This document shows positions 41,746 to 58,448 of a DNA stretch of 64,000 bases, one piece after another. The stretch spans positions 1-64,000 of the forward strand of contig NC_022792.1 in the NCBI RefSeq assembly GCF_000504085.1. The letters are read 5' to 3'. The stretch is from Pseudothermotoga elfii DSM 9442 = NBRC 107921 (GTDB lineage Bacteria > Thermotogota > Thermotogae > Thermotogales > DSM-5069). The notes under the pieces are model-generated. The model saw nothing but the letters and a program-made list of their open reading frames with translations. It was not told the origin of the DNA and ran no database searches. The stretch's first letter is position 1; the number at the start of each line of letters is the position of its first letter. The position numbers and the translations under genes were made by a program.

Positions 41746-43248
41746 CTATTTTCCCAAGCGCTTTGATTTGATTTTCTTAGATATAAACGGATAAAACAGC
41801 GAAAAAACCGTCAACAATATAAGAACTAAAGAAATCTTAGATTGAAAAAATATTGTGAAATCACCGTCAGAGAGCATCAAAGATTGCCTGAATGATTGCT
41901 CTAATTTTCCACCTACAACAGTTGCCAAAATCAATGGAGCAGTTGGAATTTCAAATTTTCTCATGGCATATCCGAGTAATCCAAATATTATTAGGAGATA
42001 AAAATCAACTGTACTCACATTGACAGCATACACACCTATGAAACACAGGGCAGCAACCAAAGGATACAGTATTTTTGGAGGTACTGCAAGCACTCTCACA
42101 AGTAGCCCTGCTAAAGGAAGATTGATCACGGCGCATATAATGTCTCCTACAAAAAGTGCTGCGATAATACCCCAGCCAATTTCGGGATATTGTTGAAACA
42201 AAAGAGGCCCTGGTTGAAGCCCATAGATCATGAGTGCACCAAGCATGACTGCCGCTGTACCAGACCCGGGTATGCCCAGCGTGAGAGTTGGTATCATAGC
42301 CCCTATAGAACAAGCATTATTTGCCGATTCTGGCGCTGCAACTCCTTCAATGGCTCCTTTACCAAATTTTTCTGGATTTTTTGAGAGTTTCTTTTCAACG
42401 TTATAAGACATGAGGGCTGCTATAGTTCCTCCTGCACCGGGTAGTATTCCTATCAGGAATCCTAAAGGTGCAGATCTCAATATTGGTACGACACTCCTTC
42501 TCCATTGCTCTTTTGTAATCCAAATTCGCTTGAATTTTTTTTGGATGGATCTATTAGATTCTTTTTTAGCCATCTTTTCAAGATTTTTTAGTACCTCACC
42601 CAAACCATAAACTCCCATAATTACCACTATGAAATCAATTCCTCCTTGAAGTTCCAAAACACCGAACGTAAATCTGGAAACACCCGATTGGGGATCAAGC
42701 CCAATGACCGATATCATCAACCCTATTGTCATCGACAATAATCCCTTCAAAACCTTGCCTTCCGATAGAGAGGCTGTGGCAGTCAAAGCTAAAACCATAA
42801 GTGCAAAATACTCAGGTGGCCCGAACATTAAAGCAATTTTTGCAAGTGGCAAAGCAAGAAAAACAAAGCCAATTGCAGCAAGCAGGCCACCTATAAAAGA
42901 AGCTATCGCTGAGATAGCAAGAGCAGCTTCAGCTTCGCCATTCATTGCCATAGGATATCCGTCAAAACAAGTCGCAACTGCTGATGCGTCTCCCGGGATG
43001 TTGAGTAAGATTGAACTTCGTGATCCACCAAACATAGCACCAAAGAAAATTGCAGCCATTGCTATTAGAGCTGTCTCGGGCTTTAACACAAATGTTAGTG
43101 GCAAAAGCAAAGCTATACCCGTGGCTGGTCCAAGGCCAGGAACCATCCCCAGAATAGTACCAAGAACACTTCCAATGGTTATCCAAAGCATATTTGATGG
43201 TCTTAAAACAACTTCAAGTCCATATATTAAGTGTTGCAACGCCTCCAT
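41746..43248 (-). CDS. tctA: tripartite tricarboxylate transporter large permease (TctA)
   Basis: Twelve-span membrane subunit, 500 residues. Family motifs: [24 protein letters not shown] near the start, [26 protein letters not shown] (the Gly/Pro-rich substrate loop), [22 protein letters not shown] and [35 protein letters not shown] in the second repeat. Works with TctB and the TctC receptor to import citrate-like or other carboxylates with sodium. Follows tctB by 12 bp. Confidence 0.95.
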
Positions 43249-43260
43249 TCAGATCACCAC

Positions 43261-43695
43261 CTATGGCAAGCTGATCATGAAAATTTTTTCAAACACATAC
43301 CATATACCAAACGTGTATGAAATTGCAACGATAATATTTATCAACCATTTCTTATACCCGTTGAGTAAAAACAACAAACCCACCAAAAACAGCATTGTTG
43401 ATGCCACAAACCCAATTATTTTGAACAACATAGCATAAGCAAAGCAGGCACATAGAATCGTAAGTATCATAAAATAACTTCTTTTTGGTACCTCTTTCCT
43501 TACTTTACTGCCCTCTGTTCTAATAAGCATTAAAAACCCTAAAACACTCATTAAAATCCCCAGACCTATGGGAAAATAAAGCGGGCTCATAGGATTTCCC
43601 ACCGGTGCTCTTGGCAACCCCAATGTTGTGATTATGTACATGACTCCAAAACTTAAAACCACTATAGCCAATATTTTTTCAGAACTTTGTTTCAT
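43261..43695 (-). CDS. tctB: tripartite tricarboxylate transporter small permease (TctB)
   Basis: Four-span membrane protein of 144 residues. Typical TctB features are an N-terminal first helix ILAIVVLSFGVMYIITTLGLP with the following MSPLYFPIGLGILMSVLGF, and a C-terminal pair of helices (IGFVASTMLFLVGLLFLLNG and the last about 20 residues before FEKIFMISLP). Identity is supported mostly by position between tctC and tctA. ATG start. Confidence 0.9.
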   Translation of the reverse strand: MKQSSEKILAIVVLSFGVMYIITTLGLPRAPVGNPMSPLYFPIGLGILMSVLGFLMLIRTEGSKVRKEVPKRSYFMILTILCACFAYAMLFKIIGFVASTMLFLVGLLFLLNGYKKWLINIIVAISYTFGIWYVFEKIFMISLP

Positions 43696-43711
43696 AATAG
43701 ACCCTCCAGAT

Positions 43712-43735
43712 TCCTGCAGGGAGAACCCTGCAGGA
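43712..43735 (-). terminator. hairpin between tctC and tctB
   Basis: Ten-pair stem TCCTGCAGGG / CCCTGCAGGA around AGAA, 5 bp after the tctC stop. No strong U-run in the leftward direction. Probably stabilises or attenuates after the receptor gene. Confidence 0.7.
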
Positions 43736-43740
43736 TTAAA

Positions 43741-44712
43741 CTATTCTTTGTACAAACCGATCTCTCTGAGTATTTCTTTATAGTTTTCATTAACTTTATC
43801 CAGGTAATTTTCGAAATCTTTTCCATTCATAAATGCCTTAGTCCAGCTGTATTTCGAAACAATTTTGTCCCACTCTGGTCTTTGAACCATTTTGCTAAAA
43901 GTATTTATCCAATAATCCACTGCATACGATGGCATATCCGGTGGTCCAAAGAATCCACGCCAATTTATGAATTCCGCGTCTATTCCTTCCTCTCTAAGAG
44001 TAGGGACAGATGACAAAATACCTCCTACTCGCTGTGGAGCAGTTACCGCTAAAACTCTTACTGCTCCTGCCTGCATTGCTGTAACAGTTTCAGCCAGCCC
44101 GGTGGATAAAACATCTATATGCCCTCCGAGTAAAGCCGCCAGATGTTCTCCTTCCTGAAAAGAAACGTAAGTTATATCTTTTAAATTTTTCACACCGGCT
44201 GCTTTTGCTGCAATGAGAAACTGTATATGGTCCATAGAACCAAACGAAGATATTCCACCCACTTTAATACTCTTGGGATCTTTTTTCAAAGCTTCCATAA
44301 TTTCTGATATACTGTTGAATTTCGATTTTTTTGAAACTGCGAATGCTCCATAGTCATGTATCAACATTGCAAGCGGGGTAAGATTTTTATAAGAATAACC
44401 TGTCTGACCGGTTAGATTTATCAACAGCAATGGCGGAGAAAAAACTATCATCGTGTATGGATCGCCTTTTTTACTTTGCATATGAGCCAAACCAACACCG
44501 CCTCCCCCTCCTGGCATGTTGACCACAATTATTGGCTGATCCACCAAATTAGTCTCTTTCAAAATTTGAGAAACCACTCTTGCTGTTGTATCCCATCCTC
44601 CTCCAGGACCTGCAGGAGCTATAAATGTGATAGGTTTTGCCGGGTAAATTTCCGCGAATAAAATCCCGGTAAAAAATACAGCTAACATAAAAATTCCAAA
44701 CCTTAATTTCAT
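43741..44712 (-). CDS. tctC: tripartite tricarboxylate transporter receptor (TctC)
   Basis: Periplasmic solute receptor of the Bug/TctC family, 323 residues with signal peptide (FGIFMLAVFFTGILFAEIYP). Family landmarks: YPAKPITFIAPAGPGGGWDTTARV, VVNMPGGGGGVGLAHM, GGISSFGSMDHIQFLIAAKAAG (two-fold beta-strand/helix contacts holding the carboxylate), and LGGHIDVLSTGLAETVTAMQAGAVRVLAV. First gene of the leftward tctCBA-gntR operon, with SD GGGAGGTGG and the palindromic operator just upstream. Confidence 0.95.
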   Translation of the reverse strand: MKLRFGIFMLAVFFTGILFAEIYPAKPITFIAPAGPGGGWDTTARVVSQILKETNLVDQPIIVVNMPGGGGGVGLAHMQSKKGDPYTMIVFSPPLLLINLTGQTGYSYKNLTPLAMLIHDYGAFAVSKKSKFNSISEIMEALKKDPKSIKVGGISSFGSMDHIQFLIAAKAAGVKNLKDITYVSFQEGEHLAALLGGHIDVLSTGLAETVTAMQAGAVRVLAVTAPQRVGGILSSVPTLREEGIDAEFINWRGFFGPPDMPSYAVDYWINTFSKMVQRPEWDKIVSKYSWTKAFMNGKDFENYLDKVNENYKEILREIGLYKE

Positions 44713-44869: not shown

Positions 44870-45754
44870 ATGAATTCAAAATCTTTTGAAAAAGCTAAAA
44901 AATTGAGAGAATATCTTCAAAGAGAAGGTGTTCTGACACTCAGGGTTTGTGCATACGATGCGCTCTCGGCTGTTTTAATAGAAAGAGCAGGTTTCGAAGT
45001 TGTTGGAACAACTGGGTATGGTATTTCTGCATCACTCATAGGGCAACCTGACATAGGTCTTGTTGGGTTTGCTGAAATGCTTGAAAGAGTGAGAACAATT
45101 GTTAATGCTACCGAACTGCCCGTCGATGCAGACATTGATACAGGTTATGGAAATGCGTTGAATGTTTTCTGGGCTGTAAAAAATTTTGCCAGAGTAGGCG
45201 TGGCTGGCATCAGGCTGGAAGATCAGGTCTGGCCAAAAAGATGTGGACACATGGAGGGAAAAAATATAGTTCCTCTCGAGGAGATGATTAACAAGATAAA
45301 AGCAGCCACCGATGCGAAAAATGAAGAAAATCCGGAAATGGTAATAGGTGCAAGAACTGATGCAAGAACAGTAGCCGGATTTGAAGAAGTGGTTCGTAGG
45401 GCTAAAGCTTACGCAGAAGCCGGGGCAGATTACGTTTATGTCGAAACTCCACAATCACTTTATGAGATTGAAACGCTTGTTAGAGAAGTATCCAAGCCAA
45501 TCTCTTTTAACATCATACCTGGTGGAAAAACACCTATTTTTGAACTGGAGAAACTCGCCGAGTTAGGGGTTAAGTATCTATCTGTCCCGATGATATGTCT
45601 GTATCCTGCGACAAAAGCTATTATGGAAGCTCTAAATGCGCTTAAAAACAAAGATCTTGAAAAAATATCACATATGGGTGTCAACTGGTCTGAATTCAAT
45701 GAAATTGTTGGAATAAAAAAATGGAATAAATTAGAAACAAAATATTCGAAATAA
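44870..45754 (+). CDS. isocitrate lyase / PEP mutase superfamily lyase (methylisocitrate-lyase-like)
   Basis: TIM-barrel C-C lyase of 294 residues. CAYDALSAVLIERAGFEVVGTTGYGISAS opens the fold, DADIDTGYGNALNV binds Mg, and PKRCGHMEGK is the active-site cysteine loop K(R/K)CGH of methylisocitrate/isocitrate lyases; ARTDAR follows near 160. The Cys argues for a lyase rather than oxaloacetate decarboxylase or PEP mutase. Divergent from the tricarboxylate transporter across a shared operator, so it may split the imported tricarboxylate (for example 2-methylisocitrate or dimethylmalate) into pyruvate and a second acid (inference). Confidence 0.88.
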   Translation: MNSKSFEKAKKLREYLQREGVLTLRVCAYDALSAVLIERAGFEVVGTTGYGISASLIGQPDIGLVGFAEMLERVRTIVNATELPVDADIDTGYGNALNVFWAVKNFARVGVAGIRLEDQVWPKRCGHMEGKNIVPLEEMINKIKAATDAKNEENPEMVIGARTDARTVAGFEEVVRRAKAYAEAGADYVYVETPQSLYEIETLVREVSKPISFNIIPGGKTPIFELEKLAELGVKYLSVPMICLYPATKAIMEALNALKNKDLEKISHMGVNWSEFNEIVGIKKWNKLETKYSK

Positions 45755-45792: not shown

Positions 45793-47586
45793 TCAGCGCA
45801 ATTTTGCCAAAGTTGCTTCGGCTGTTTCAAGCATATTCTTTGAAGTCTCTATTTGCTTTACGGCTGCTTTAAATCCATCCAGACATTCATAATATGGCAG
45901 AGAGGTACCCTCAATATAATTCACAGCCAGACTGTTCTGCAGGATTCCATCTTTCGATATCTCGAAATATCTTTCATCGTCAACAAAAGAACCATCCGGA
46001 ACATGGTATCGTAAAGCTACAAAACCATCTTCAGTATTGAGCAAATCCCTGCCAAACGAAACCACGCCGGAATCGTCTATCCCTATTACATTAAGAACTG
46101 TACGCAAGAAATCTATCTGCCCCCCAACGGTACTTACAATTTCATTGATTTTGCAACCCGGGATATGAAAAATTAGAGGAATATTCATAGCCTCTTTGTA
46201 TGTATATTCTTTTTCAAAGATCGCAGACAACCTTTCTTTTGATTCTTTATTGAATGGATATAAACCTGCATGATCTCCATACAGTATAAGAATGCATCTC
46301 TCATACAACCCTGCTTTTTTCAGCCTATCTACAAAAATTCCAAGGGCGTAATCTGCATAATGAACTGCCTGAAGATAGTTTCCAAACATCGTATTCTCAT
46401 CTTCCGGTAAAAGCATAAGTTTTCTATATTGTTCCGGTATAACAAAAGGGCTATGACTTGATACTGTTACGAGAAAGGAAAAAAATGGTTCGGGATAGTT
46501 TTTCAAAACATCCACAGACTGTTCGAAAAAGGAAACATCATTCAACCCCATACCGAATACTTCATCCTGATTGAAATCTTCCAAACTAAGGAATTTTTCA
46601 AAACCAAGATGAGGGTATATTTTGAATCTATTCCAGAACCAACCAACGTTACCGTGCATTGCCACTGTATGAAATCCATGATTTTTCAATATCCTTGGTA
46701 GAGCATAAAAATCTATATCAGCATACTTTTCATAAGCAACTTCGTCGCCTGGCACATGCAAAGAGACAAGCGAAACAAATTCCGCATCGGCAGTGTTTCC
46801 TATACCTGTTTGTTGATAGTAATTGTTGAAATATATCGAATCATTCCTGACAAGTTTGTTGAGGTTTGGTGTGACTTCCTGACCGTTATATCTCATATTC
46901 ACCAGAAAATTCTGGAATGATTCAAGTTGGACAACTATGATATTTCTATTTGAAGCAATGGACCAATATTTTTTGGAAGATGGCTGCTCGTGGTTCATAT
47001 GAGTCACTGAATAGTTCTCTCGCTCAGGTTTCGAAAAGACTGTAGCAATATCAAAAATATGGTACGCAAAAAAGCCATATCTGTTAAAAACCTGGCCAGG
47101 CTTCAATTTTTCGGATACAAGGGGAACAATTGCAAATACACTACATAAAATCATTGTCAAAAACAATCCTTTGGGAGTACTGAAATCAGTTGTTCTCAAT
47201 TGTAAATAACGCCTTCTATCAAAAATCCCAAGTGGTATTAAATCTGCAACAAACAGCAGGGAAAAAAAATTTGTGAAATACCTTATATTTGCCCCAAGTT
47301 TTCCAACTTGAGGCAGGAGAACAAGCTGTTTAACAGACGGAAGATTGCCAAAGTTCTGAAAATAGAGAAAATCTATAAAAAGTGCTATGGATATTACGCA
47401 ATAAAGACCAAACCCCCATTCTCTGAAAAAGAAAGTGAACAGAAGAAAAAACAGAATCAGCCAGCCAGTTGTACTCAGGAGAGTTGAAAATCTCAAAACC
47501 TCTGGTACCGTCGTATAGAAACCGAAGATCTTCAAGCTGCTTAAAATAAGTAAAAACAACATGTAATTCAACGTAGACTTCAGCAT
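45793..47586 (-). CDS. LtaS-like membrane sulfatase / phosphoglycerol transferase
   Basis: 597-residue protein: about five membrane helices (1-165), then an extracytoplasmic sulfatase-fold domain. VVQLESFQNF supplies the metal-binding Glu, GIGNTADAEF the catalytic Thr, AMHGNVGWFWNR the substrate region and ILYGDHAGLYPF the C-terminal Asp-His metal pair, all as in LtaS-type lipoteichoic-acid synthases and OpgB/MdoB phosphoglycerol transferases. Thermotogales are not known for teichoic acids, so the acceptor may be a glycolipid or envelope glycan (inference). ATG start; divergent from the deacetylase cassette. Confidence 0.9.
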   Translation of the reverse strand: MLKSTLNYMLFLLILSSLKIFGFYTTVPEVLRFSTLLSTTGWLILFFLLFTFFFREWGFGLYCVISIALFIDFLYFQNFGNLPSVKQLVLLPQVGKLGANIRYFTNFFSLLFVADLIPLGIFDRRRYLQLRTTDFSTPKGLFLTMILCSVFAIVPLVSEKLKPGQVFNRYGFFAYHIFDIATVFSKPERENYSVTHMNHEQPSSKKYWSIASNRNIIVVQLESFQNFLVNMRYNGQEVTPNLNKLVRNDSIYFNNYYQQTGIGNTADAEFVSLVSLHVPGDEVAYEKYADIDFYALPRILKNHGFHTVAMHGNVGWFWNRFKIYPHLGFEKFLSLEDFNQDEVFGMGLNDVSFFEQSVDVLKNYPEPFFSFLVTVSSHSPFVIPEQYRKLMLLPEDENTMFGNYLQAVHYADYALGIFVDRLKKAGLYERCILILYGDHAGLYPFNKESKERLSAIFEKEYTYKEAMNIPLIFHIPGCKINEIVSTVGGQIDFLRTVLNVIGIDDSGVVSFGRDLLNTEDGFVALRYHVPDGSFVDDERYFEISKDGILQNSLAVNYIEGTSLPYYECLDGFKAAVKQIETSKNMLETAEATLAKLR

Positions 47587-47678: not shown

Positions 47679-48425
47679 ATGAATTCTTTACTAGAACATC
47701 TCAGAAATTTTTTCAAAATGCCAGATTTAGAGGAATACAGAACAATTCTATGCATACAACCTCACCCAGATGACGCAGATATAGGTATGGGAGCAACGGT
47801 GGCAAAGCTATCTGAAAAAGGCGCTAAAGTTTTCTACCTCACAGTGACAGATGGTAGTGCCGGTTCAACCAACGAAAGATTAATCGGAGAGACTTTGAGC
47901 AAAATACGCAAAGAAGAGCAAGAAAAAGCTGCTGAAATTCTTGGTGTACATGACCTGATCTGGCTTGATTTCGAAGACTTAGGAGATTACCAGTTGAAAG
48001 AATTAAGGTCAATGATAGCAGAACATATCGTTGTCTTAAAGCCCGATATCGTTTTTACCGTTGACCCATTTTTACCATATGAAATTCACCCGGATCATAT
48101 AAAATGCGGTTTCGCTGCTGCCCAGGCGAGTAGTTTTTATAAATTGCCAAAAATTTCCAAATTTAGAACCGATCATATCCTGCACGCGATTGGTTTTTTC
48201 AACACAGCCAATCCTAATAACTTTTATCAGATCGAGAGAAAGCACCTTGAAAAAAAGTTTCTTGCACTATCCCATCATAAAAGCCAATTTGATGAAAAAA
48301 CTCTTCAGACATTATATTTTTATTTAGAAGAGAGGGCAAAGGTTGGAGAAGACAAACTGGCAGAGTCATTCAAAATACTGCCCCCTGTTATGCTCCACGT
48401 TTTTCCAGAAGCGCAGGATTTCTAA
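47679..48425 (+). CDS. PIG-L / LmbE family deacetylase
   Basis: Zinc-dependent N-deacetylase fold, 248 residues. CIQPHPDDADIGMGATVAKL gives the HPDD metal/catalytic motif, FYLTVTDGSAGSTN the second, and EIHPDHIKCG the downstream HxxH. The family removes acetyl from GlcNAc-containing lipids, mycothiol precursors or, in archaeal Dac enzymes, diacetylchitobiose. ATG after AAGGTG. First gene of a cassette with a sugar kinase, a GH4 phosphoglycosidase and a GPH carrier, pointing to an N-acetylated disaccharide substrate (inference). Confidence 0.9.
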   Translation: MNSLLEHLRNFFKMPDLEEYRTILCIQPHPDDADIGMGATVAKLSEKGAKVFYLTVTDGSAGSTNERLIGETLSKIRKEEQEKAAEILGVHDLIWLDFEDLGDYQLKELRSMIAEHIVVLKPDIVFTVDPFLPYEIHPDHIKCGFAAAQASSFYKLPKISKFRTDHILHAIGFFNTANPNNFYQIERKHLEKKFLALSHHKSQFDEKTLQTLYFYLEERAKVGEDKLAESFKILPPVMLHVFPEAQDF

Positions 48426-48438
48426 GGGAGGAAAGAAA

Positions 48439-49404
48439 ATGTACTTCATGGGTATCGATGTAGGTGGAAGTAAAACAGATGTTGCTATCGTTGATAAAAA
48501 TGGAAAATTGATCTCTCACGTCAGAGCTTCAGGGGCAAATTATCAAGGAGTAGGAGTGCAGAAAGCCTACGAAATTTTAAAAAGTGCTATAAACGATGCT
48601 TTGCAAAAATCCAGTTTAAATTATAATGAGCTTTCGTACTCTTACTTTGGTGTTGCCGGTGCAGATATGGAGTATGAAATAAAAATTGTTAAATCCATAC
48701 TCGAAAGACTCCAATTGAAAAACTATGACTTTGATAATGACGGTAGAATAGCCCTGAAATCTGGTACTTTCGACGATAAAGGCATCCTGATAAGTTGTGG
48801 AACCGGCGGAATAACCTATGCAGGAGATGGGAAGAAGATCGCAAGAAAGGGCGGCTTTTCGAGATTCTTCGGTGAAAGACTTGGAGCATTCGTTATCGCA
48901 AGTATGGTAGCTTCTGCTATTATCAGGTCAAAAGATCAAAGAGATGAAAACACACTTATGAAACAAATATTCGAATCAAAAATAAACCAGCCGATAGAAG
49001 AAATAATGCATTATGAATATGCAAATGAGGATAAGTCAAAGTTAGCAGAATATGCCATTTTACTCATACAATCTCTTTACGAAGCCGCTCATCAATTTGA
49101 CTATGTAGCACTTAGAATAATGGGAAATATTGTCGATGAAATAATAAAAATTGTTACAGCATACAGAAAAGAAATGTATTTTACCTCTCCTGTAAAGGTT
49201 GTCTTAGAGGGAAGCTTTTTCAAAAAAGCAGATCCAATACTGATAAACATGATACAGTCAGCTCTTAGCGACGAATACATTCTCATAATTCCAAAACATC
49301 CTCCTGTGGTTGGTGCGGTGCTACTCGCTGCTGAAAAAGCAGGTTATAAATACGATGAAAATTTTATCGCCAATTTACTGAGTCACTGGGGGGGTAAAAA
49401 ATGA
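48439..49404 (+). CDS. BadF/BadG-type ATPase, N-acetylglucosamine-kinase-like
   Basis: Actin-fold sugar kinase of 321 residues. MGIDVGGSKTDVAIVDKNG is phosphate-1, YFGVAGADME and NDGRIAL lie at the sugar site, ISCGTGGITYAGD is phosphate-2, and RKGGFSRFFGERLGAFVIA matches GlcNAc kinase. The frame opens at 48343 but ATG 48439, after GGGAGGAAAG, is the start. Its stop overlaps the GH4 start (ATGA). Such kinases phosphorylate GlcNAc or glucosamine and, in this setting, might phosphorylate a disaccharide for GH4 (inference). Confidence 0.88.
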   Translation: MYFMGIDVGGSKTDVAIVDKNGKLISHVRASGANYQGVGVQKAYEILKSAINDALQKSSLNYNELSYSYFGVAGADMEYEIKIVKSILERLQLKNYDFDNDGRIALKSGTFDDKGILISCGTGGITYAGDGKKIARKGGFSRFFGERLGAFVIASMVASAIIRSKDQRDENTLMKQIFESKINQPIEEIMHYEYANEDKSKLAEYAILLIQSLYEAAHQFDYVALRIMGNIVDEIIKIVTAYRKEMYFTSPVKVVLEGSFFKKADPILINMIQSALSDEYILIIPKHPPVVGAVLLAAEKAGYKYDENFIANLLSHWGGKK

Positions 49405-50654
49405 AAATAACGGTTATTGGTGCCGGAAGTACTTATACCCCGGAGCTTGTCAAAGGCATCATGGACATATCCAGCGAAGTAAAAGTAGACGAGCTTATTC
49501 TGTACGATCTGGAAGAATCGGAAGAAAAGCTTGAAACTATATACCAGTTCAGCAAAAGACTGGTAAAAGACCTTTTCAAAGTGGTGAAACCGAAAAATTT
49601 GATCGATGCACTTCAAGGAGCCGATTATGTGATTTTTCAATTCAGAGTTGGTTTTCTCAAAGCAAGAGAAAATGATGAAAAAATTCCCCTTCGTTACAAT
49701 CTGATCGGCCAGGAAACAACAGGCATGGGAGGATTTTCCTGCGCACTGAGAACATTTCCAGTCATTGAAAAATACATCGAGCTGGTTGACAAATATAGCA
49801 AAGCAACAGTCATAAACTTTACCAATCCTTCGGGTCACATAACAGAATTCGTGATGAATTATATAGGTTTCGAAAGATTCATAGGTTTGTGCAATATTCC
49901 GGTAAATTTGCTTCACATGATTTCACAGGTAACTGGATATCCGCCGAAAGACATATTCGTCAAATACTATGGATTGAATCACCTGACATTTCTTGAAAAA
50001 GTCTACTTGAAAAATGAAGATGCAACTGAGAAATTGCTTGAGACCGTTAAATTGGAACTTGCAAATATACCAAAGGAAGATTTTCCGGGCTGGTTAATAG
50101 AATGCCTGAAGATGTATCCGAATTCTTATTTGAGATACTATCTTATGGAGAAAAAAATGCTCAAAAAAATAAAAAAAGAAGGTACACGTGCCGAAAAAGT
50201 AATCTCCATTGAAAAGCAGCTGCTCGAACTTTACAAAACAGGTGATAAAATCCCTGATCAGCTTTCTCAGCGAGGCGGTAGCATGTATTCAACGGCAGCA
50301 GCCTATCTTATCAGAGATCTGCATCTTTCAAATGGTTCGGTGCATATACTAAATACAAGAAATAATGGAGCCATCAGCAATCTCCCTGATGATTACGTTT
50401 TGGAAATACCATGTATGGTCAAAGCCGGAAAAGTTTTTCCAACCTCACTTGGTATTGCTGATGAATTTGCATCCGGGCTTATCCATATTGTAAAAATGTA
50501 CGAGCGCATAACTATCGACGCATACCTTAAAAAATCGAAGAACCTCGCGCTCAAGGCCATGCTTCTACACCCGCTGGGCCCAGATGTTGAAGATGCTCCA
50601 AAATTACTCGAAGATATTTTAAACGCAAACAAAGATTTCATTAAACTTGAATAG
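49401..50654 (+). CDS. glycoside hydrolase family 4 (6-phospho-beta-glucosidase-like)
   Basis: NAD+ and Mn2+ dependent glycosidase that works by redox elimination, 417 residues. ITVIGAGSTYTPELVKGI is the dinucleotide fold; NLIGQETTGMGGFSCALRTFPV and INFTNPSGHITEF are conserved; FIGLCNIP holds the metal-binding Cys and YGLNHLTF the metal His; SQRGGSMYSTAAAYLI carries the late Tyr. The pattern is closest to BglT/ChbF 6-phospho-beta-glycosidases rather than alpha enzymes. ATGA overlap with the kinase suggests the kinase makes its phosphorylated substrate. Confidence 0.92.
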   Translation: MKITVIGAGSTYTPELVKGIMDISSEVKVDELILYDLEESEEKLETIYQFSKRLVKDLFKVVKPKNLIDALQGADYVIFQFRVGFLKARENDEKIPLRYNLIGQETTGMGGFSCALRTFPVIEKYIELVDKYSKATVINFTNPSGHITEFVMNYIGFERFIGLCNIPVNLLHMISQVTGYPPKDIFVKYYGLNHLTFLEKVYLKNEDATEKLLETVKLELANIPKEDFPGWLIECLKMYPNSYLRYYLMEKKMLKKIKKEGTRAEKVISIEKQLLELYKTGDKIPDQLSQRGGSMYSTAAAYLIRDLHLSNGSVHILNTRNNGAISNLPDDYVLEIPCMVKAGKVFPTSLGIADEFASGLIHIVKMYERITIDAYLKKSKNLALKAMLLHPLGPDVEDAPKLLEDILNANKDFIKLE

Positions 50655-50665
50655 GAGTGGAAAAG

Positions 50666-51982
50666 GTGAAAAATTTCCTATACAGTCTGGGATCTTTCAG
50701 TTCTGCTTTGTTTTCCAACGCGATCTCCACCTTTGCCATTTTCTACTACGTCGATGTTTTAAAAGCCCCGCCTCATTTAATAAGCATAATCATGGTGTTA
50801 TACGGAATCTGGAACGCTATAAATGATCCTCTATTCGGATATCTTTCCGACACAACGAAGACAAGATGGGGAAGAAGAAAGCCCTATATTGTATGGTTTT
50901 CCCTGCCCCTAACAATAAGTTTTGCCATGTTCTGGGCACCACCTTTCGATAGCTCCCAGAAAACAGCTCTGGTTATTTACTACCTGATTATGATCTTTCT
51001 ATTTGATACGTTTTTCACCATAGTTTTCCTGAACTGGACTGCTTTGTTTCCAGAGATGTATCCAACCCTCAAAGAACGCGCAAAAATCTCCGGACTAAGG
51101 CAAATTCTTGCCATACCGGGACTTTTACTTGGAGTAGCAGTTACCCCTGTAATTGCTGCAAAGATTGGATGGGGGAAAATGGGTGCGGTCTTTGCAGTGA
51201 TTGGTGGTTCTATCCTCTATATGACACTGTTTGGAATTAAGGAAAACCCGGAGTTTTCTCATCAACAAACTCTGAATATAATTGAGGCAATAAAGTTCAC
51301 CTTTTTCAACAGGTCTTTTTTCACCTATGTCGTGCCGTCATTTCTTTTACAATTTACATACACCATGCTGACAGCTACACTCCCATTTTATGCAAAATAT
51401 GTCCTCAAAGCCAGTGAGACACAAACTACTTTGCTTTTAGCTTCAATATTCGTCGTGGCTTTTTTCCTCATACCCGTCTGGCAAAAAATAACAGCGAAGA
51501 TAGGAGCCAAAAAAACCATGAAGGTTTCAATGATTTTGTGGGCAATACTCCTGATTGGTTTTGGATTCGTGAAAACCTTTTTTCAAGCAATTATATTAAC
51601 CTCTGCTCTTGCCATGAGCCTTGCCGGAGCTCTGATCGTCTTTGACATAATGATTGCCGATATATCTGACGAAGATGAGATTAAAACTGGCAAGAGGAGA
51701 GAAGGAATGTATTTTGGAGCAAACGCGCTTATAATAAGGCTCGGCATCTCTTTGAACTCGTTAATCATGGGATTTGTGCTTTCTTCAAGCGGATATGATG
51801 CAAATTTACCTGCAGAAATGCAACCACTAACGGCTGTTTCCGGATTCAGAATTCTATGCAGTGTCGTACCAATAATTGCTACGATAGGTGGTCTACTTAT
51901 TTTGAAATACTACCCACTTGAGGGCGATTATCTAAATCGAATTAAAGAAAAGATTAAAAATATGCGTGGCGAGGAAGTATGA
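50666..51982 (+). CDS. GPH-family sugar/cation symporter
   Basis: Twelve-span carrier of the glycoside-pentoside-hexuronide family (MelB-like), 438 residues. FYYVDVLKAPP in helix 1, GIWNAINDPLFGYLSDTTKTRWGRRKPYI is the GPH signature with the cation-site Asp and the loop 2-3 motif, and a second-half DISDEDEIKTGKRREGMYFGA is diagnostic. Expected to import a glycoside with Na+ or H+, here in place of a PTS. GTG 50666 lies 8 nt after AGGAG; GTG 50657 overlaps the SD. The stop overlaps rsmD (ATGA). Confidence 0.93.
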   Translation: MKNFLYSLGSFSSALFSNAISTFAIFYYVDVLKAPPHLISIIMVLYGIWNAINDPLFGYLSDTTKTRWGRRKPYIVWFSLPLTISFAMFWAPPFDSSQKTALVIYYLIMIFLFDTFFTIVFLNWTALFPEMYPTLKERAKISGLRQILAIPGLLLGVAVTPVIAAKIGWGKMGAVFAVIGGSILYMTLFGIKENPEFSHQQTLNIIEAIKFTFFNRSFFTYVVPSFLLQFTYTMLTATLPFYAKYVLKASETQTTLLLASIFVVAFFLIPVWQKITAKIGAKKTMKVSMILWAILLIGFGFVKTFFQAIILTSALAMSLAGALIVFDIMIADISDEDEIKTGKRREGMYFGANALIIRLGISLNSLIMGFVLSSSGYDANLPAEMQPLTAVSGFRILCSVVPIIATIGGLLILKYYPLEGDYLNRIKEKIKNMRGEEV

Positions 51983-52500
51983 AGATAACAGGAGGAACCC
52001 TCAAAGGCTACCATTTGAATCCCGTTCCTGATTCAAGGACGAGATATACAACTTCACTTGTGAGACAGGCTGTTTTCAACATGATTGATGTTTCACAAAG
52101 CAGTTTTTTAGAGCTTTTTTGCGGGAGCGCTGTGATGTCAATCGAAGCGCTGAGCCGCGGAGCAAAACACGCTGTTGCGGTTGATATTTCAAGCAAAGCA
52201 ATTAAAACCGCCATTGAAAATGCGAAAAAATGCGGGGTTGAACTCAAAATTGTGAAATCCGATTTCAGAAAATTCATCAACCTCTGCAACGACAATTTTG
52301 ATGTTGTTTTTGCCGATCCTCCATATAATCTTGGCTTTGTTCAAAAACTTCTCGAGCTTCTTTCAATAAAGCCGTCTCTCGGTCAGATAATCATTATTGA
52401 AAAAGCAGCAGCAGAACAGGTTGTTATCCCTGAAAAATTAAAAATTCTGAAATCAAAAAAATATGGGGAAACGGAGGTTCTTGTGATTGCAAGAACATAA
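51979..52500 (+). CDS. rsmD: 16S rRNA (guanine966-N2)-methyltransferase
   Basis: SAM-dependent enzyme modifying G966 of 16S rRNA, 173 residues. MKITGGTLKGYHLNPVPDS..TRYTTSLVRQAVFNMI is the classic N-terminal RsmD sequence, LELFCGSAVMSIEALSRGA the SAM loop, and VVFADPPYNLGF the (D/N)PPY catalytic motif. A housekeeping gene attached by an ATGA overlap to the end of a sugar operon. It ends one base from the convergent FGGY kinase gene with no terminator seen. Confidence 0.95.
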   Translation: MKITGGTLKGYHLNPVPDSRTRYTTSLVRQAVFNMIDVSQSSFLELFCGSAVMSIEALSRGAKHAVAVDISSKAIKTAIENAKKCGVELKIVKSDFRKFINLCNDNFDVVFADPPYNLGFVQKLLELLSIKPSLGQIIIIEKAAAEQVVIPEKLKILKSKKYGETEVLVIART

Positions 52501-52501
52501 A

Positions 52502-53944
52502 TCAGAAATTCTCCACCCACATTCTGTACAATTTGCTGTAATATTCAAAAAGCGATCGATCAGGTCGGAAAATCTCAACTTCATTATTAGATAGATAACC
52601 GCCAATAGAATGAAGATCACCCTTGCTCAAAAAATAAAGTATCGTACCAAGCGCAGCCCCCTGCCGTTTACTTTGGACCAAAATAGGATGGTTTAAAATA
52701 GCTGAAAGCATTTTCATCCAAACAGTCGCTCGCGTTAGACCACCCGTTGCAAACACTTTTTCAAGTGAATCAGGTATAGTTTTCACCACATCAAAAGCTC
52801 TCTTTAGATTGAAAGCGATACCCTCAAGTACACTTCTGGCTACTTGTTCTTGCGTCGTCGTACTTGTCAAGTTATCAAACTTTGCCCTGGGAGAAGGATC
52901 AAACTCAGGAAACCTTTTCCCAAAGATAAACGGATAAAAAAGCACAGGTTTTTCATCCAAAAAATTCAGATTTTCCTCCACCTTTTTTACAATAGTTTCA
53001 TGATCATAACAGCAAAACAGCTTTACATACCAGTCGAAAACATAACCACCATTTTTGATGGCTGCACCTGAGATATAATGATTCTCATCCAGCACATAGC
53101 ACCAGATACTACTCACAGGATATTGTTTCACAGGATGATTCAATACAGCCCTTATAGCTGCGCTACTACCAACAGATATCGTTATTGAATTTTCAACGAA
53201 GGCGCCAGCCCCAATACTCGAAGCTGCTGCATCAGAGATACCGACCACTACCGGCAATCCTTCTGGCAAACCAGTGATTTTAGCTGCTTCTTTGCTCAAT
53301 CTCAAAACAGTTTTTGGAGAAACAAGTTGTGGCAATTTTTCACTGCTTATTTCTAAAAAATCTTTTAACAGTTCTTCGCACCAAACTTTTTTTTCAATAT
53401 CCATATACCCGCTTCCAGAAGCAACGCCTATATCGCTGACCAGATCACCTGTTAACTTGTATATTACGTAATCCTTTAGAGAAACTATTTTTGAGGCAGA
53501 ATTCAACATGTCTTTTTCATTCTGTTTTATCCAAAGGAGTTTATAAAGAGGATAAACTGTATCCGGTGGACATCCAGTTTTCAAATGTAAATGCTTCGAA
53601 AGCTGATTATCTGAAATCACCTTTTTAACATGATCAACAGATCTCTCATCAAGCCATGGTATAACATTACTCAGTGGCTCAAAGTCACCATTAAGCAACA
53701 TGACAGTGTGAAGAGCAGAATCGAGGACTATAGCTCTTACATTTGTAAAAGATTTGGAAACCTGTTTCAATGTTTCGAAAACAGCCCTTTCGATTTGACG
53801 AGGATCCTGTTCAAACTGCCCATGTCCTTTTGAGAAAGCTTCATAAGATTGACTTACGTCCATTTCTATCTTTTTAGCATCAGAGTTGTAAACAATAGTC
53901 TTAACAGCTGTCGTACCTATATCGACGCCAATGTACATTTCCAT
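52502..53944 (-). CDS. FGGY-family sugar kinase (gluconokinase-like)
   Basis: Carbohydrate kinase of 480 residues. N-terminal MYIGVDIGTTAVKTIVYN (phosphate-1), HGQFEQDP and DSALHTVMLL resemble gluconokinase, PWLDERS marks the sugar site, VGISDAAASSIGAGAF and TISVGSSAAIR are adenosine/phosphate motifs, and VFATGGLTRATVWMKML the C-terminal FGGY signature region. Assignment to gluconate is inference from sequence feel and neighbours. The frame opens at ATG 53962, which contains the SD GGAGGTG; ATG 53944 is used. Last gene of the TRAP operon. Confidence 0.88.
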   Translation of the reverse strand: MEMYIGVDIGTTAVKTIVYNSDAKKIEMDVSQSYEAFSKGHGQFEQDPRQIERAVFETLKQVSKSFTNVRAIVLDSALHTVMLLNGDFEPLSNVIPWLDERSVDHVKKVISDNQLSKHLHLKTGCPPDTVYPLYKLLWIKQNEKDMLNSASKIVSLKDYVIYKLTGDLVSDIGVASGSGYMDIEKKVWCEELLKDFLEISSEKLPQLVSPKTVLRLSKEAAKITGLPEGLPVVVGISDAAASSIGAGAFVENSITISVGSSAAIRAVLNHPVKQYPVSSIWCYVLDENHYISGAAIKNGGYVFDWYVKLFCCYDHETIVKKVEENLNFLDEKPVLFYPFIFGKRFPEFDPSPRAKFDNLTSTTTQEQVARSVLEGIAFNLKRAFDVVKTIPDSLEKVFATGGLTRATVWMKMLSAILNHPILVQSKRQGAALGTILYFLSKGDLHSIGGYLSNNEVEIFRPDRSLFEYYSKLYRMWVENF

Positions 53945-53974
53945 CGCCCGGGGCACCTCCATTTGTTAAACCTA

Positions 53975-54949
53975 TTATCCCCTTAAAAATCCCATTTCAA
54001 GCAGTTTTTCAACAACTTTCTCATTTGCAACATGCAGAGGAATCTTTCCATCAAAGAAATCCACAACTGCCTGAGCAGACATCATATTCATTTTATAAAT
54101 AGCTTCATAAGTATGAGCCCCAGCATGTGGAGTTAAAACCAGATTGGGACAGTCATACAAGATAGAATCCTCTGGCAGTGGCTCTTGCTCAAAGGCATCT
54201 AAGGCAGCTCCAGATATGTAACCTTCCTTCAAAGCTTCGACAAGAGCACGCTCATCAACGATACCTCCACGCGAGGTATTGATGAGAAATGCAGATTTTT
54301 TCATCATTTTCAGTTGCTCTTTGCCTATCATATGCTTAGTTGATTGAGTCAATGGAACATGGAGCGAAACAAAATCACTGTTTTTCAATAAAGTTTCAAG
54401 GTCAACAGCTTCTACGGAATGTCTTTCTATTATGTTTTTTTCAACATACGGATCACACGCCAGAACTTTCATTCCAAGACAGATTGCTCTTTTGGAAGTT
54501 TCCCTTCCTATTGCCCCAAAACCTATTATTCCAAGCGTCTTGCCAAAAATTTCTATTCCTGTCACAGGAGAAAACTTTTTCTCAGAGATCTCTCTGTACG
54601 AATCTATCAATCTCCTCGAAAGGGCTAATATAAGTGCTATAGTCAACTCTGCCACTGATACAGTATTAGCATTCGGCGTTATCGTAACAGGTATACCAAG
54701 TTCTGTGGCTGTTTTCAAATCAACGTTGTCCACTCCTACTCCATGTCTTGCAATTATTTTTATGGAAGAGTGTCTTATCATTTCTCCGCTAAGTTTGCCT
54801 GTACCAAGTATAATTGCATCTGCTCTCTTTAAAATATTTTCATCAAGGTATTCCGGCCGAAGCAATGTGAAACCATTTTTTTCTAACAATTTCACGGGTT
54901 CTTCCGAATATTTTCCGAATGTTCTCGTAGCAACAATTACCGTTTTCAC
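53975..54949 (-). CDS. D-isomer-specific 2-hydroxyacid dehydrogenase
   Basis: NAD(P)-dependent dehydrogenase of 324 residues, SerA/GhrB-type. GFGAIGRETSKRAICLGMKVLACDPY is the nucleotide-binding fold (no clear NADP-specific basic pair after it), LINTSRGGIVDERALVEAL holds the catalytic Arg/Glu region and VLTPHAGAHTYEA the catalytic His. No ACT domain, so it is not a full-length regulated SerA. Between a gluconokinase-like and a regulator gene, a role as 2-ketogluconate reductase is plausible (inference). GTG start after AGGAGGGG. Confidence 0.9.
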   Translation of the reverse strand: MKTVIVATRTFGKYSEEPVKLLEKNGFTLLRPEYLDENILKRADAIILGTGKLSGEMIRHSSIKIIARHGVGVDNVDLKTATELGIPVTITPNANTVSVAELTIALILALSRRLIDSYREISEKKFSPVTGIEIFGKTLGIIGFGAIGRETSKRAICLGMKVLACDPYVEKNIIERHSVEAVDLETLLKNSDFVSLHVPLTQSTKHMIGKEQLKMMKKSAFLINTSRGGIVDERALVEALKEGYISGAALDAFEQEPLPEDSILYDCPNLVLTPHAGAHTYEAIYKMNMMSAQAVVDFFDGKIPLHVANEKVVEKLLEMGFLRG

Positions 54950-54971
54950 ACCGTTCCCCTCCTGAAAGATA

Positions 54972-55814
54972 TCAATACTTCAACTCCGAAACAGCCAGCC
55001 TGCTTTTATTAAGGCTCTCTACTGCTTTTGGATCTTTTGCCGCAAGCATCGTGTATATTGTGTCAAGAATCACCAATTGAACAATACGAGATGTCATGGC
55101 ATCTGTTCTTATACGTGTTTCTCTTGTATTGGTGCAAAGGACAACCGTAGAAACTTTTGCTAAACTTGATTTTCTATTACCAGTAACAGTAACAACAGGA
55201 ACTCCAAGTCCAATTGCTTTTTTTGCCAGCGAAACCATGGATTTCGTCTCTCCAGAATGAGAAACAGCTACAAGCACATCGCCAGCAATAGAATTTGCAA
55301 GCAATGTGGCCATTATATGTTCGTCGTTCGAAAAAAGGCAATTTTTTCCTATCCTGCTAAATTTGTGAAATGCATCAAAAGCCACTGCAGCTGAAGCAGC
55401 AAAACCAAAAAACAACACTCTGTTTGCTTCTTTTATGAGATCAGTAGCCTTTTCAATGGCATCAAAATCTATACTATCAAGTGTGTCGAGAATCGCTTTA
55501 ACTGTGGCTTTGAAAATCTTTTGAGTAATTGTCTTCAAGTCGTCCTGCTCAGAAACATCTTCATAAACAATTTCCAGCGGAGCTTTCGATAGATCCTGAG
55601 CAAGTAACACTTTAAACTGCTGAAAGCTGCTTAAATTCAGTTTTCTGTAGAATTTAACTACCGAAGCCTCGCTTTTTACATTTGCAAGTCTGCTCAGTTC
55701 ACTTATGGAACATTCAAGAACACCTCTTGGATTTGTCAGTATCACATCAGCTATCCTTTTTTCAGCAGCGGTTAAAGAATCATAAACAGTTCTCAGGGTT
55801 TGAAGAATATCCAT
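54972..55814 (-). CDS. RpiR-family transcriptional regulator
   Basis: Sugar-phosphate-responsive regulator of 280 residues. HTH_6 domain (1-about 75; LTAAEKRIADVILTNPRGV; SISELSRLANVKSEASVVKFYRKL in part) and a SIS sugar-phosphate-binding domain (about 125-250; FFGFAASAAVAFDAF; AVSHSGETKSMVSLAKKA). Controls the operon in which it lies. The frame opens at 55841; ATG 55814 after GGAGGTGG is used. An 88-bp gap from the SDR gene could hold its own promoter, but none is convincing. Confidence 0.92.
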   Translation of the reverse strand: MDILQTLRTVYDSLTAAEKRIADVILTNPRGVLECSISELSRLANVKSEASVVKFYRKLNLSSFQQFKVLLAQDLSKAPLEIVYEDVSEQDDLKTITQKIFKATVKAILDTLDSIDFDAIEKATDLIKEANRVLFFGFAASAAVAFDAFHKFSRIGKNCLFSNDEHIMATLLANSIAGDVLVAVSHSGETKSMVSLAKKAIGLGVPVVTVTGNRKSSLAKVSTVVLCTNTRETRIRTDAMTSRIVQLVILDTIYTMLAAKDPKAVESLNKSRLAVSELKY

Positions 55815-55902
55815 TTTTTCCACCTCCAGAGTTTTGTTCAATGCTCCATAGAAAAGTTTAGCTCAGTGCAGTTTATTTTCTATTTAATAGCTTAATGTAA
55901 AA

Positions 55903-56658
55903 TTACACCATTGTAGATCCTCCGTCAATGTTTATAAAACTGCCTGTCATAAAAGATGCCTCATCACAGGCTGCAAACAATATTGCAAACGCGATTTCTT
56001 CTTCTTTACCAAGACGTTTCATGGGAATTCGTGAAACCATTTTATTCATAGTTTCTTCTGGATTCGCAGATGACCTGACTCTTTCAGCGAGTCCTTGAGA
56101 GTAGGTTGTACCAGGGCAAATGGCGTTCACTCTTATTCCATATTGAACATAATCAACAGCAAAAGATCTTGTCAAACCGAGCAAAGCTGCCTTTGAAATG
56201 CTGTAAACACACCTGCGAGGAATACCAATTAAACCTGCCTCTGAAGCAATGTTAACTATGACGCCAGATCTCTGCTCTTTCATATACTTTACGGCGTGCT
56301 TCGATAGTAAAAATGGTCCTTTCACATTTATATCTATTGTCTTTTGAAATTCTTCATCAGAGGTTTCTTCAGCGTTTCCATAAGGCACTATCCCAGCATT
56401 GTTAACCAGTATATCAATTTTTCCAAAAACCTCAACTGTTTTTTCGACTATCTTTTCTGCATCTTTGGAAACATCCCCAAAAACAAAAATTGCTTCACCA
56501 TTCTGATTTTTGATCATCTCGACCGTTTCATTTCCCTTTTCTTCCGAAACATCGTTTATCGCCACCTTAGCACCTCTTTCGGCAAACATCATAGCAGCTT
56601 TTCTCCCTATACCAGAACCGGCTCCTGTAATTAAAACAACCTTTCCCTTAAAATTCAT
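55903..56658 (-). CDS. short-chain dehydrogenase/reductase
   Basis: Classical SDR of 251 residues: GAGSGIGRKAAMMFAERGAKVAI (cofactor loop, followed by ND, favouring NAD), NNAGIVPYG, the Ser in VNIASEAG, and active-site YSISKAALLGLTR (YxxxK), then INIDGGSTMV at the end. Close in style to gluconate 5-dehydrogenase and 3-oxoacyl reductase types. In this TRAP/gluconokinase operon, 5-ketogluconate reductase is a reasonable guess (inference). It follows dctM by 12 bp. Confidence 0.92.
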   Translation of the reverse strand: MNFKGKVVLITGAGSGIGRKAAMMFAERGAKVAINDVSEEKGNETVEMIKNQNGEAIFVFGDVSKDAEKIVEKTVEVFGKIDILVNNAGIVPYGNAEETSDEEFQKTIDINVKGPFLLSKHAVKYMKEQRSGVIVNIASEAGLIGIPRRCVYSISKAALLGLTRSFAVDYVQYGIRVNAICPGTTYSQGLAERVRSSANPEETMNKMVSRIPMKRLGKEEEIAFAILFAACDEASFMTGSFINIDGGSTMV

Positions 56659-56670
56659 CTCACTACCTCC

Positions 56671-57954: not shown

Positions 57955-58448
57955 TTATCTTCCCCCTCAGTGCTGGCCCTTTCTTTGTTTTCGGCAAACT
58001 CACTTTTTATTTTTAAAAAAGTAGTCCTCAGCATCAATATCGCTCCTATTGGTATACTCAATGTAACCCACGTATAACTGAAATTTGGAATACCAACGAA
58101 AGTTCTGAAACGAGTCGTGTAAGAAAGATAAAATCCCCATATTACTAAATAAATCAAAAAAGCCGCAATAATAAAATAATTGGCAAGTCTGAGAATTTTC
58201 TGTACTTTTCGAGAAAGCCTTTTAACAAATAAATCAACCGTCATCATCTTTCCCTCACGCCATGCAACATCAGCTGCAAAAAAACATGCCCAGGCAAACA
58301 TGAATGTGCTCATATCAACTGCCCAATTTATTGGATATCTCAAAAATCTCATTATTCCAGATGCAAAAACCAGTATCACCATAACCAGAATCAATATTTT
58401 TGCTGCATTTTTCTCAAACTTAAGCAAAAACTCATCAATCTTCCGCAT
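57951..58448 (-). CDS. dctQ: TRAP transporter small permease (DctQ), second copy
   Basis: 165-residue, four-span protein. INWAVDMSTFMFAWACFFAADVAWREGKMMTVDLF (in part) is the DctQ helix 2 and loop, and SYTWVTLSIPIGAILMLRTTFL the last helix; charged tail AENKERASTEGED. ATG start; separated from dctP by 88 bp that include a hairpin. Confidence 0.92.
   Translation of the reverse strand: MRKIDEFLLKFEKNAAKILILVMVILVFASGIMRFLRYPINWAVDMSTFMFAWACFFAADVAWREGKMMTVDLFVKRLSRKVQKILRLANYFIIAAFLIYLVIWGFYLSYTTRFRTFVGIPNFSYTWVTLSIPIGAILMLRTTFLKIKSEFAENKERASTEGEDK

What the first reader, a model, noticed from the sequence alone, without database searches (positions are those of the whole stretch)
47679..51982. 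Possible PTS-free counterpart of the chitobiose (chb) pathway
Gene order is PIG-L deacetylase, BadF/GlcNAc-kinase-like ATPase, GH4 phospho-glycosidase, GPH symporter. In E. coli, chitobiose enters by a PTS as the 6-phosphate, is deacetylated by ChbG and split by the GH4 enzyme ChbF. Here a GPH carrier would replace the PTS, a cytosolic kinase would phosphorylate, the PIG-L enzyme would deacetylate and GH4 would cleave. Kinase and GH4 overlap by ATGA, as expected for consecutive steps.
Basis: inference. Interest (0 to 1): 0.6.

Follow-up and report, generated by a model that had tools for sequence, protein, structure and literature searches.

The report
PTS-free chitobiose-type kinase–glycosidase operon
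A heat-loving bacterium without the usual sugar-phosphorylating importer carries a gene set that looks able to import a chitin-type sugar pair, remove an acetyl group, add a phosphate with a separate kinase, and cut it, which would also explain what a well-studied enzyme of Thermotoga is for.

Summary
PIG-L is closest, among solved structures, to archaeal diacetylchitobiose deacetylases. The GH4 is a close relative of Thermotoga maritima BglT, which needs 6-phosphorylated substrates. The kinase has a BadF/NagK fold but forms its own clade. Among 103 Thermotogota genomes all 29 with this GH4 have this kinase (26 adjacent, 3 on different contigs), and none of the 29 shows a PTS EIIC or HPr match. 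T. maritima's own BglT sits beside the kinase. So a cytosolic kinase most probably makes the 6-phospho-beta-glycoside that the PTS makes elsewhere. The chitobiose part is plausible but conditional: PIG-L shares the cluster in 9 genomes, once with a GlcN6P-deaminase-like gene and in two with a chitin-oligosaccharide-type ABC binding protein; but it is absent from T. maritima-type genomes, a congener keeps PIG-L after losing the other three genes, the window genome has no GH18 match and has a separate NagK/GH20 locus, and nothing has been assayed. A new variant of a known pathway kind, not a new kind.

The parts
47679..48425 (+). PIG-L (CE14-type) deacetylase, 248 aa, nearest to archaeal diacetylchitobiose deacetylases
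   Evidence: PF02585 107.5 bits; PDB 8bgn/8bgo/3wl4/3we7 149-167 bits, next best other PIG-L structure 52 bits; BshB1 77.5 bits against a cut-off of 182.5
48439..49404 (+). BadF/NagK-fold sugar kinase of the GH4-linked clade; inferred 6-kinase of a beta-linked disaccharide
   Evidence: PF01869 143.1 bits; NagK_SO3507 62.1 bits against a cut-off of 370; model pLDDT 91.5, closest fold MurK 8zo3 Z 30.3, rmsd 2.9 over 297 residues; one clade of 34 rows, support 99/96
49401..50654 (+). GH4 6-phospho-beta-glycosidase (BglT/ChbF type)
   Evidence: PF02056/PF11975; T. maritima BglT 1up4/1up6/1up7 578.6 bits; 38% identical to E. coli ChbF with shared CNIP and Q(L/F)RVG...R..DE.IPL blocks
50657..51982 (+). 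GPH-type (MFS_2) cation symporter, inferred carrier of the disaccharide
   Evidence: PF13347 234.9 bits; TIGR00792 199.6 bits, below its cut-off of 231.35; MelB among the PDB matches; PIG-L is followed by a 31-32% identical GPH in four further genomes without kinase or GH4 match
49401..49404 (+). ATGA overlap of kinase stop and GH4 start
   Evidence: a 4-nt kinase/GH4 overlap also in 19 other loci by the coordinates printed
51979..52500 (+). rsmD (16S rRNA G966 methyltransferase), last gene of the run; housekeeping, not part of the pathway
   Evidence: TIGR00095 124.7 bits over a cut-off of 117.5; ATGA overlap with GPH

Best explanation
The operon is a PTS-free counterpart of the E. coli chb route. 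Inferred steps: (1) the GPH symporter brings in an N-acetylated beta-linked disaccharide, most likely diacetylchitobiose; (2) the PIG-L enzyme removes the acetyl group of the non-reducing sugar, giving GlcN-beta-1,4-GlcNAc; (3) the BadF-type kinase phosphorylates that sugar at O6 with ATP; (4) the NAD+/Mn2+-dependent GH4 cleaves it into GlcN-6P and GlcNAc, which go to the GlmD/NagB-II-like deaminase, NagK and NagA encoded elsewhere in the genome. Best supported: the kinase supplies the GH4's phosphorylated substrate (about 0.8). Less sure: that this substrate is chitobiose-derived in this organism (about 0.6). Open: whether PIG-L acts before or after the kinase. No step has been shown biochemically for these proteins; only the requirement of BglT for a 6-phospho substrate is shown, for the T. 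maritima enzyme.
For: 29 of 29 GH4 genomes have the kinase; 26 adjacent within 72 nt, three of these with the gene order swapped; 3 on different contigs; 0 of 29 with EIIC or HPr matches. The pair is also adjacent in a Spirochaetales MAG, in a second genome of its phylum, and in five genomes of another phylum. The G090 GH4 is 100% identical to BglT 1up4 over 414 residues and has the same kinase next to it; a paper passage says BglT requires a 6-phospho hexopyranoside (PMC10628242). The kinases form one clade of 34, 99/96, apart from NagK paralogues, many of which sit beside GlmD-like SIS, ABC or GH20 genes. Trp140-Gly141 is in 25 of 25 comparison kinases and 0 of 34 clade members. PIG-L is nearest to diacetylchitobiose deacetylases. 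In G089 the order is DeoR, GlmD-like SIS, PIG-L, kinase, GH4. In G012 and G015 it is ROK, kinase, GH4, SBP5 ABC transporter, PIG-L; the SBP5 of G012 best matches Vibrio chitin-oligosaccharide-binding protein structures, and that of G015 is 82% identical to it. Strong GH18 genomes: 7 of 8 have PIG-L against 20 of 95 others. E. coli logic, that GH4 cleaves GlcN6P-glycosides and phosphorylated chitobiose must be deacetylated first, from a passage of PMC12791066.
Against: 11 of 29 GH4 genomes have no PIG-L match, among them all seven T. maritima-type (g13) genomes, so the pair does not need it. G065 keeps PIG-L next to rsmD without kinase or GH4 match. 9 of 27 PIG-L genomes lack the GH4. The window genome has no GH18 match at E 1e-10 and has a second GlmD/ABC/NagK/GH20 locus that could serve chitobiose. 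The T. maritima regulon study gives chitobiose to chiEFG-cbsA-nagAB (PMC3750489 passages). In three other lineages DegT and/or GFO/IDH/MocA genes join the pair, pointing to other substrates. The association counts ignore shared ancestry.
Confidence: 0.6

Rival explanations
1. The kinase-GH4 pair is a general beta-glucoside (cellobiose-type) kinase plus 6-phospho-beta-glucosidase module; PIG-L and GPH in this operon are partners for a different or only sometimes shared purpose, and the main substrate is a plain beta-glucoside.
For: In T. maritima-type genomes the pair stands without a PIG-L match and without a recognised transporter beside it. BglT is deposited as a 6-phospho-beta-glucosidase and cleaves 6-phospho-phlorizin, though slowly (PMC10628242 passage). 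PIG-L and the GH4 occur apart in 9 + 11 genomes.
Against: PIG-L shares a cluster with the pair in 9 genomes, with a GlmD-like deaminase in one and a chitin-oligosaccharide-type binding protein in two. ChbF, a GlcN6P-glycosidase, keeps the same sequence blocks.
Confidence: 0.25
2. The kinase is a monosaccharide (GlcNAc or GlcN) kinase that merely shares an operon with the GH4; the phosphorylated disaccharide comes from elsewhere or the GH4 takes non-phosphorylated glycosides.
For: Nearest solved folds are MurK, S. tokodaii hexokinase and human NAGK, all monosaccharide kinases. BadF kinases of known function, as I recall them, act on monosaccharides.
Against: No EIIC or HPr match in any of the 29 GH4 genomes, BglT needs a 6-phospho substrate, a separate NagK-type paralogue sits beside GH20 in this genome, and the clade has lost the Trp-Gly motif of all 25 comparison kinases.
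Confidence: 0.12
3. PIG-L works in low-molecular-weight thiol (bacillithiol-like) synthesis and is in the operon by chance.
For: Weak resemblance to BshB1/BshB2 models; the PIG-L of G089 scores 114.7 bits to BshB1.
Against: BshB1 score 77.5 against a cut-off of 182.5; no gene over the BshA cut-off in the genome (best 121.7 against 273.7); diacetylchitobiose deacetylases score far higher.
Confidence: 0.03

Closest known systems
E. coli chb pathway (ChbBCA PTS, ChbG, ChbF)
   Same: Deacetylase plus GH4 acting on a 6-phosphorylated beta-disaccharide; GH4 38% identical to ChbF with shared signature blocks
   Different: No PTS EIIC or HPr match; an ATP-type kinase and a GPH carrier instead; PIG-L instead of a YdjC-type ChbG (the family of ChbG is recalled; passage says it lacks similarity to other such deacetylases)
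Thermotoga maritima BglT (1UP4/1UP6/1UP7)
   Same: Same GH4 subgroup, same kinase neighbour
   Different: The genome with the identical BglT has no PIG-L match and no GPH labelled next to it
Klebsiella beta-glucoside kinase BglK
   Same: Concept of an ATP kinase making 6-phospho-beta-glucosides without PTS (a beta-glucoside kinase is cited in the PMC10628242 passage; source organism recalled)
   Different: Recalled as a ROK-family kinase; the kinase here is in the BadF/NagK family
Archaeal diacetylchitobiose deacetylase (Dac) with GlmA glucosaminidase
   Same: Dac-type PIG-L; deacetylation before cleavage (pathway recalled)
   Different: Cleavage by a GH4 on a phosphorylated sugar instead of a glucosaminidase on the free one
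BadF/NagK GlcNAc and MurNAc/GlcNAc kinases (NAGK 2CH5, MurK 8ZO3)
   Same: Fold, Z 26.8-30.3
   Different: Separate clade, Trp-Gly motif lost, tied to GH4 rather than to GH20 or GlmD

Membership tests
E. coli-type chb pathway | PTS import with phosphorylation | tested here: not met
   0 EIIC (PF02378) and 0 HPr (PF00381) matches in the window genome; none in any of the 29 GH4 genomes
E. coli-type chb pathway | GH4 of the ChbF/6-phospho type | tested here: met
   38% identity to ChbF, shared CNIP and QxRVG...R..DE.IPL blocks; a distant GH4 row (G100_other) lacks them
E. coli-type chb pathway | chitooligosaccharide deacetylase | tested here: inconclusive
   PIG-L closest to diacetylchitobiose deacetylase structures by sequence; activity not testable here
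GH4 6-phospho-beta-glucosidase (BglT) | both GH4 domains and close sequence relation to BglT | tested here: met
GH4 6-phospho-beta-glucosidase (BglT) | activity on 6-phospho-beta-glycosides with NAD+ and Mn2+ | not testable with these tools
   needs assay; T. maritima enzyme requires a 6-phospho substrate (passage)
GlcNAc kinase NagK | score over the NagK_SO3507 cut-off | tested here: not met
   62.1 bits against 370; the cut-off is for one equivalog; the paralogue at L067, 104.2 bits, also fails it
BadF/BadG/BcrA/BcrD ATPase superfamily | PF01869 over cut-off and fold | tested here: met
   143.1 bits against 31.5; Z 30.3 to MurK
Diacetylchitobiose deacetylase (PIG-L/CE14) | PF02585 and nearest relation to Dac | tested here: met
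Bacillithiol deacetylase BshB | score over BshB1/BshB2 cut-offs | tested here: not met
   77.5 against 182.5; 73.6 against 195.25
GPH cation symporter | PF13347 over cut-off; TIGR00792 over cut-off | tested here: inconclusive
   PF13347 234.9 against 27 met; TIGR00792 199.6 against 231.35 not met

The most novel reading that the evidence does not exclude
The kinase clade is an undescribed family of ATP-dependent disaccharide (beta-glycoside) 6-kinases of BadF type, the missing partner that gives BglT its substrate in PTS-less Thermotogota. The kinase-GH4 pair would be a portable module, re-targeted by its partners: PIG-L for N-acetylated sugars such as chitobiose, and DegT aminotransferase plus GFO/IDH/MocA dehydrogenase for amino-sugar or amino-cyclitol glycosides.
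Probability: 0.45. Interest if true: 0.65.

Novelty: new variant of a known kind. Interest (0 to 1): 0.52.

Why it matters
BglT of T. maritima is a model enzyme for the NAD+-dependent GH4 mechanism, yet an organism without PTS should have no 6-phospho-beta-glycoside to offer it. A dedicated kinase beside it, present in every genome examined that has the GH4, gives a direct and testable answer. If right, it adds ATP-driven disaccharide phosphorylation by a BadF-type kinase to carbohydrate catabolism, and warns that such kinases should not be annotated as GlcNAc kinases by fold alone.

Tried and rejected
Bacillithiol role for PIG-L: rejected on scores and lack of a BshA over cut-off. Non-phospho alpha-glycosidase role for the GH4: disfavoured by sequence blocks and BglT relation. 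Promoter and terminator scan and Rfam gave nothing beyond chance. Counting ATGA at GH4 starts (27 of 29) is uninformative, because ATG followed by a codon beginning with A gives ATGA anyway; not used. Association of PIG-L or kinase with an efflux/ABC-like set in g4 and G005 looked like chance neighbours (OEP hit). Row handling: A1 left out the G062, G087, G014 and G003 kinases (partial or fragmentary, except G062, which I simply did not include); A2 left out L107, L110 and L113 (partial or at contig ends); the GH4 alignment used 16 rows, a hand-picked subset; the G208 kinase row was read on the wrong strand and ignored, and was read correctly. Of the 34 clade rows, 32 have GH4 next to them (G086 ends at a contig end, G005 has GH4 on another contig). 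Fisher values ignore phylogeny. The genome-contig scan used two peptide patterns and can miss relatives.

Literature: 10 of 10 searches used. No listed paper was seen to join BglT with a BadF kinase or to describe a PIG-L/kinase/GH4 route; the library is open-access PMC only and most listed papers were not opened, so this is weak. Papers seen as passages only: PMC3750489, PMC5507952 (not relevant), PMC10628242, PMC12791066, PMC9402603, PMC11653859; the others as search listings.
Full report
What is there. The window lies in a 2,169,860-base single-contig genome. It is of the Thermotogota: a record of the same family group is titled Pseudothermotoga sp. (L097, equal in length to G062 contig 106). 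I recall the genome length as that of P. elfii, which no call shows. The GH4 is closest to T. maritima BglT, 578.6 bits over its full length. The PIG-L is closest to archaeal diacetylchitobiose deacetylases, 149-167 bits, while the next PIG-L structure scores 52. The kinase matches PF01869 well, but scores only 62 bits on the NagK equivalog model, whose cut-off is 370.

The kinase and the GH4 belong together. In 103 Thermotogota genomes the kinase (the closely related class, leaving out the weaker NagK-like paralogues) was found in 31 and the GH4 in 29. All 29 GH4 genomes have the kinase. In 26 the genes are next to each other, with 2-72 bases between matched residues; in 3 they are on different contigs. 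In G097, G098 and G099 the order is reversed and the pair stays together. Outside the phylum the pair is adjacent in a Spirochaetales MAG (L112), in a second genome of its phylum (G208), and in five genomes of another phylum (G104, G440, G443, G444, G448). Two kinase genomes lack a visible GH4: G003, where only a fragment was matched, and G086, where the contig ends shortly after the kinase.

There is no sign of a PTS to do the phosphorylation. PTS EIIC (PF02378) is over cut-off in 5 of 103 genomes and HPr in 12 of 103; none of these is among the 29 GH4 genomes. PF02378 does not cover every EIIC class, but HPr is common to PTS systems (recalled). A passage in PMC10628242 says that BglT requires a 6-phospho hexopyranoside. 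The GH4 of G090 is 100% identical to BglT over 414 residues and has the same kinase directly upstream. From this I infer that the kinase makes the GH4's substrate.

The kinase is its own subfamily. A tree of 59 proteins puts 34 kinases of this type in one clade (99/96), apart from 18 NagK paralogues and 7 others. Many of the paralogues, including the one in this genome, sit beside GlmD-like SIS genes, ABC transporters or GH20. At window residues 140-141 all 25 comparison proteins have Trp-Gly; none of the 34 has either. The model is confident (pLDDT 91.5) and closest to MurK with GlcNAc, Z 30.3. That a changed pocket admits a disaccharide is inference; no ligand was modelled.

The chitobiose part. 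PIG-L was found in 27 of 103 genomes: 18 of the 29 GH4 genomes and 9 of the other 74. It lies in the same cluster as the pair in 9 genomes: G000, G057, G063, G064, G089, G012, G014, G015 and the Spirochaetales MAG (in G014 next to the GH4, the kinase being on another contig). In G089 the operon reads DeoR regulator, two-domain SIS protein resembling GlmD/NagB-II glucosamine-6-phosphate deaminases, PIG-L, kinase, GH4; the SIS match is below the curated cut-offs. In G012 and G015 it reads ROK, kinase, GH4, SBP5 ABC transporter, PIG-L. The SBP5 of G012 is closest to a group of structures (5yqw, 6lzu and others, which I recall as a Vibrio chitooligosaccharide-binding protein) followed by 8i5j and 1zty, the last named chitin oligosaccharide binding protein. 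The same group heads the list for the SBP5 next to PIG-L in G011. Of 8 genomes with a strong GH18 chitinase match, 7 have PIG-L, against 20 of 95 others. In four genomes PIG-L is followed by a GPH carrier without kinase or GH4 match. In E. coli, ChbF cleaves GlcN6P-glycosides and phosphorylated chitobiose must first be deacetylated (PMC12791066 passage); ChbF is 38% identical to the window GH4.

What speaks against chitobiose here. Eleven GH4 genomes have no PIG-L match, including all seven T. maritima-type genomes. G065, of the same genus, keeps PIG-L beside rsmD but has no kinase or GH4 match. The window genome has no GH18 match, so it would depend on chitobiose made by others. It also has a GlmD-like/ABC/NagK/GH20 locus and a NagA over cut-off. 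In T. maritima chitobiose is assigned to another operon (PMC3750489 passages). In G004, G099 and the Spirochaetales MAG a DegT aminotransferase, in the last two also a GFO/IDH/MocA dehydrogenase, joins the pair. The Spirochaetales DegT is nearest to 2-deoxy-scyllo-inosose aminotransferases. So the pair may serve other amino-sugar glycosides elsewhere.

Verdict. The PTS-free kinase-to-GH4 step is well supported by context. The full chb-like chain is the best single reading for this operon, at about 0.6. By kind it is a variant of the chb and 6-phospho-beta-glucoside pathways, with the kinase as the new element.

Noticed in passing
L112 1566-11449; L087 277-3798; L080 2194-9839: Kinase-GH4 pair joined by DegT aminotransferase (all three) and GFO/IDH/MocA dehydrogenase (L112, L080), in L112 also by PIG-L and an SBP1-type ABC transporter; suggests amino-sugar or amino-cyclitol glycoside use in other lineages.
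   Followed up: partly
window 45793-47586 (-): Membrane sulfatase-family protein resembling lipoteichoic acid synthase (272.9 bits against a cut-off of 970) in a bacterium not known to me for teichoic acids; a relative is divergent from the operon in G064 and G057 too.
   Followed up: no
L048 1059-2527: G065, same genus, has PIG-L directly followed by rsmD, with kinase, GH4 and GPH missing: a likely three-gene loss that leaves PIG-L intact.
   Followed up: partly
window 52502-58448 (-): FGGY kinase, 2-hydroxyacid dehydrogenase, RpiR regulator, then by my reading a short-chain dehydrogenase and a TRAP transporter: looks like a sugar-acid catabolic cluster; partly conserved beside the operon in G063.
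   Followed up: no
window 41746-44712 (-): By my reading, a TctA/TctB/TctC-like tripartite transporter next to an isocitrate-lyase-like gene at 44870-45754; not searched.
   Followed up: no
L067 6418-18000: Second amino-sugar locus of the window genome: GH20, NagK paralogue, SBP1 ABC, SIS_2 protein and GlmD-like SIS, with two mutually related proteins (560 and 373 aa) without any Pfam match at 1e-8.
   Followed up: no
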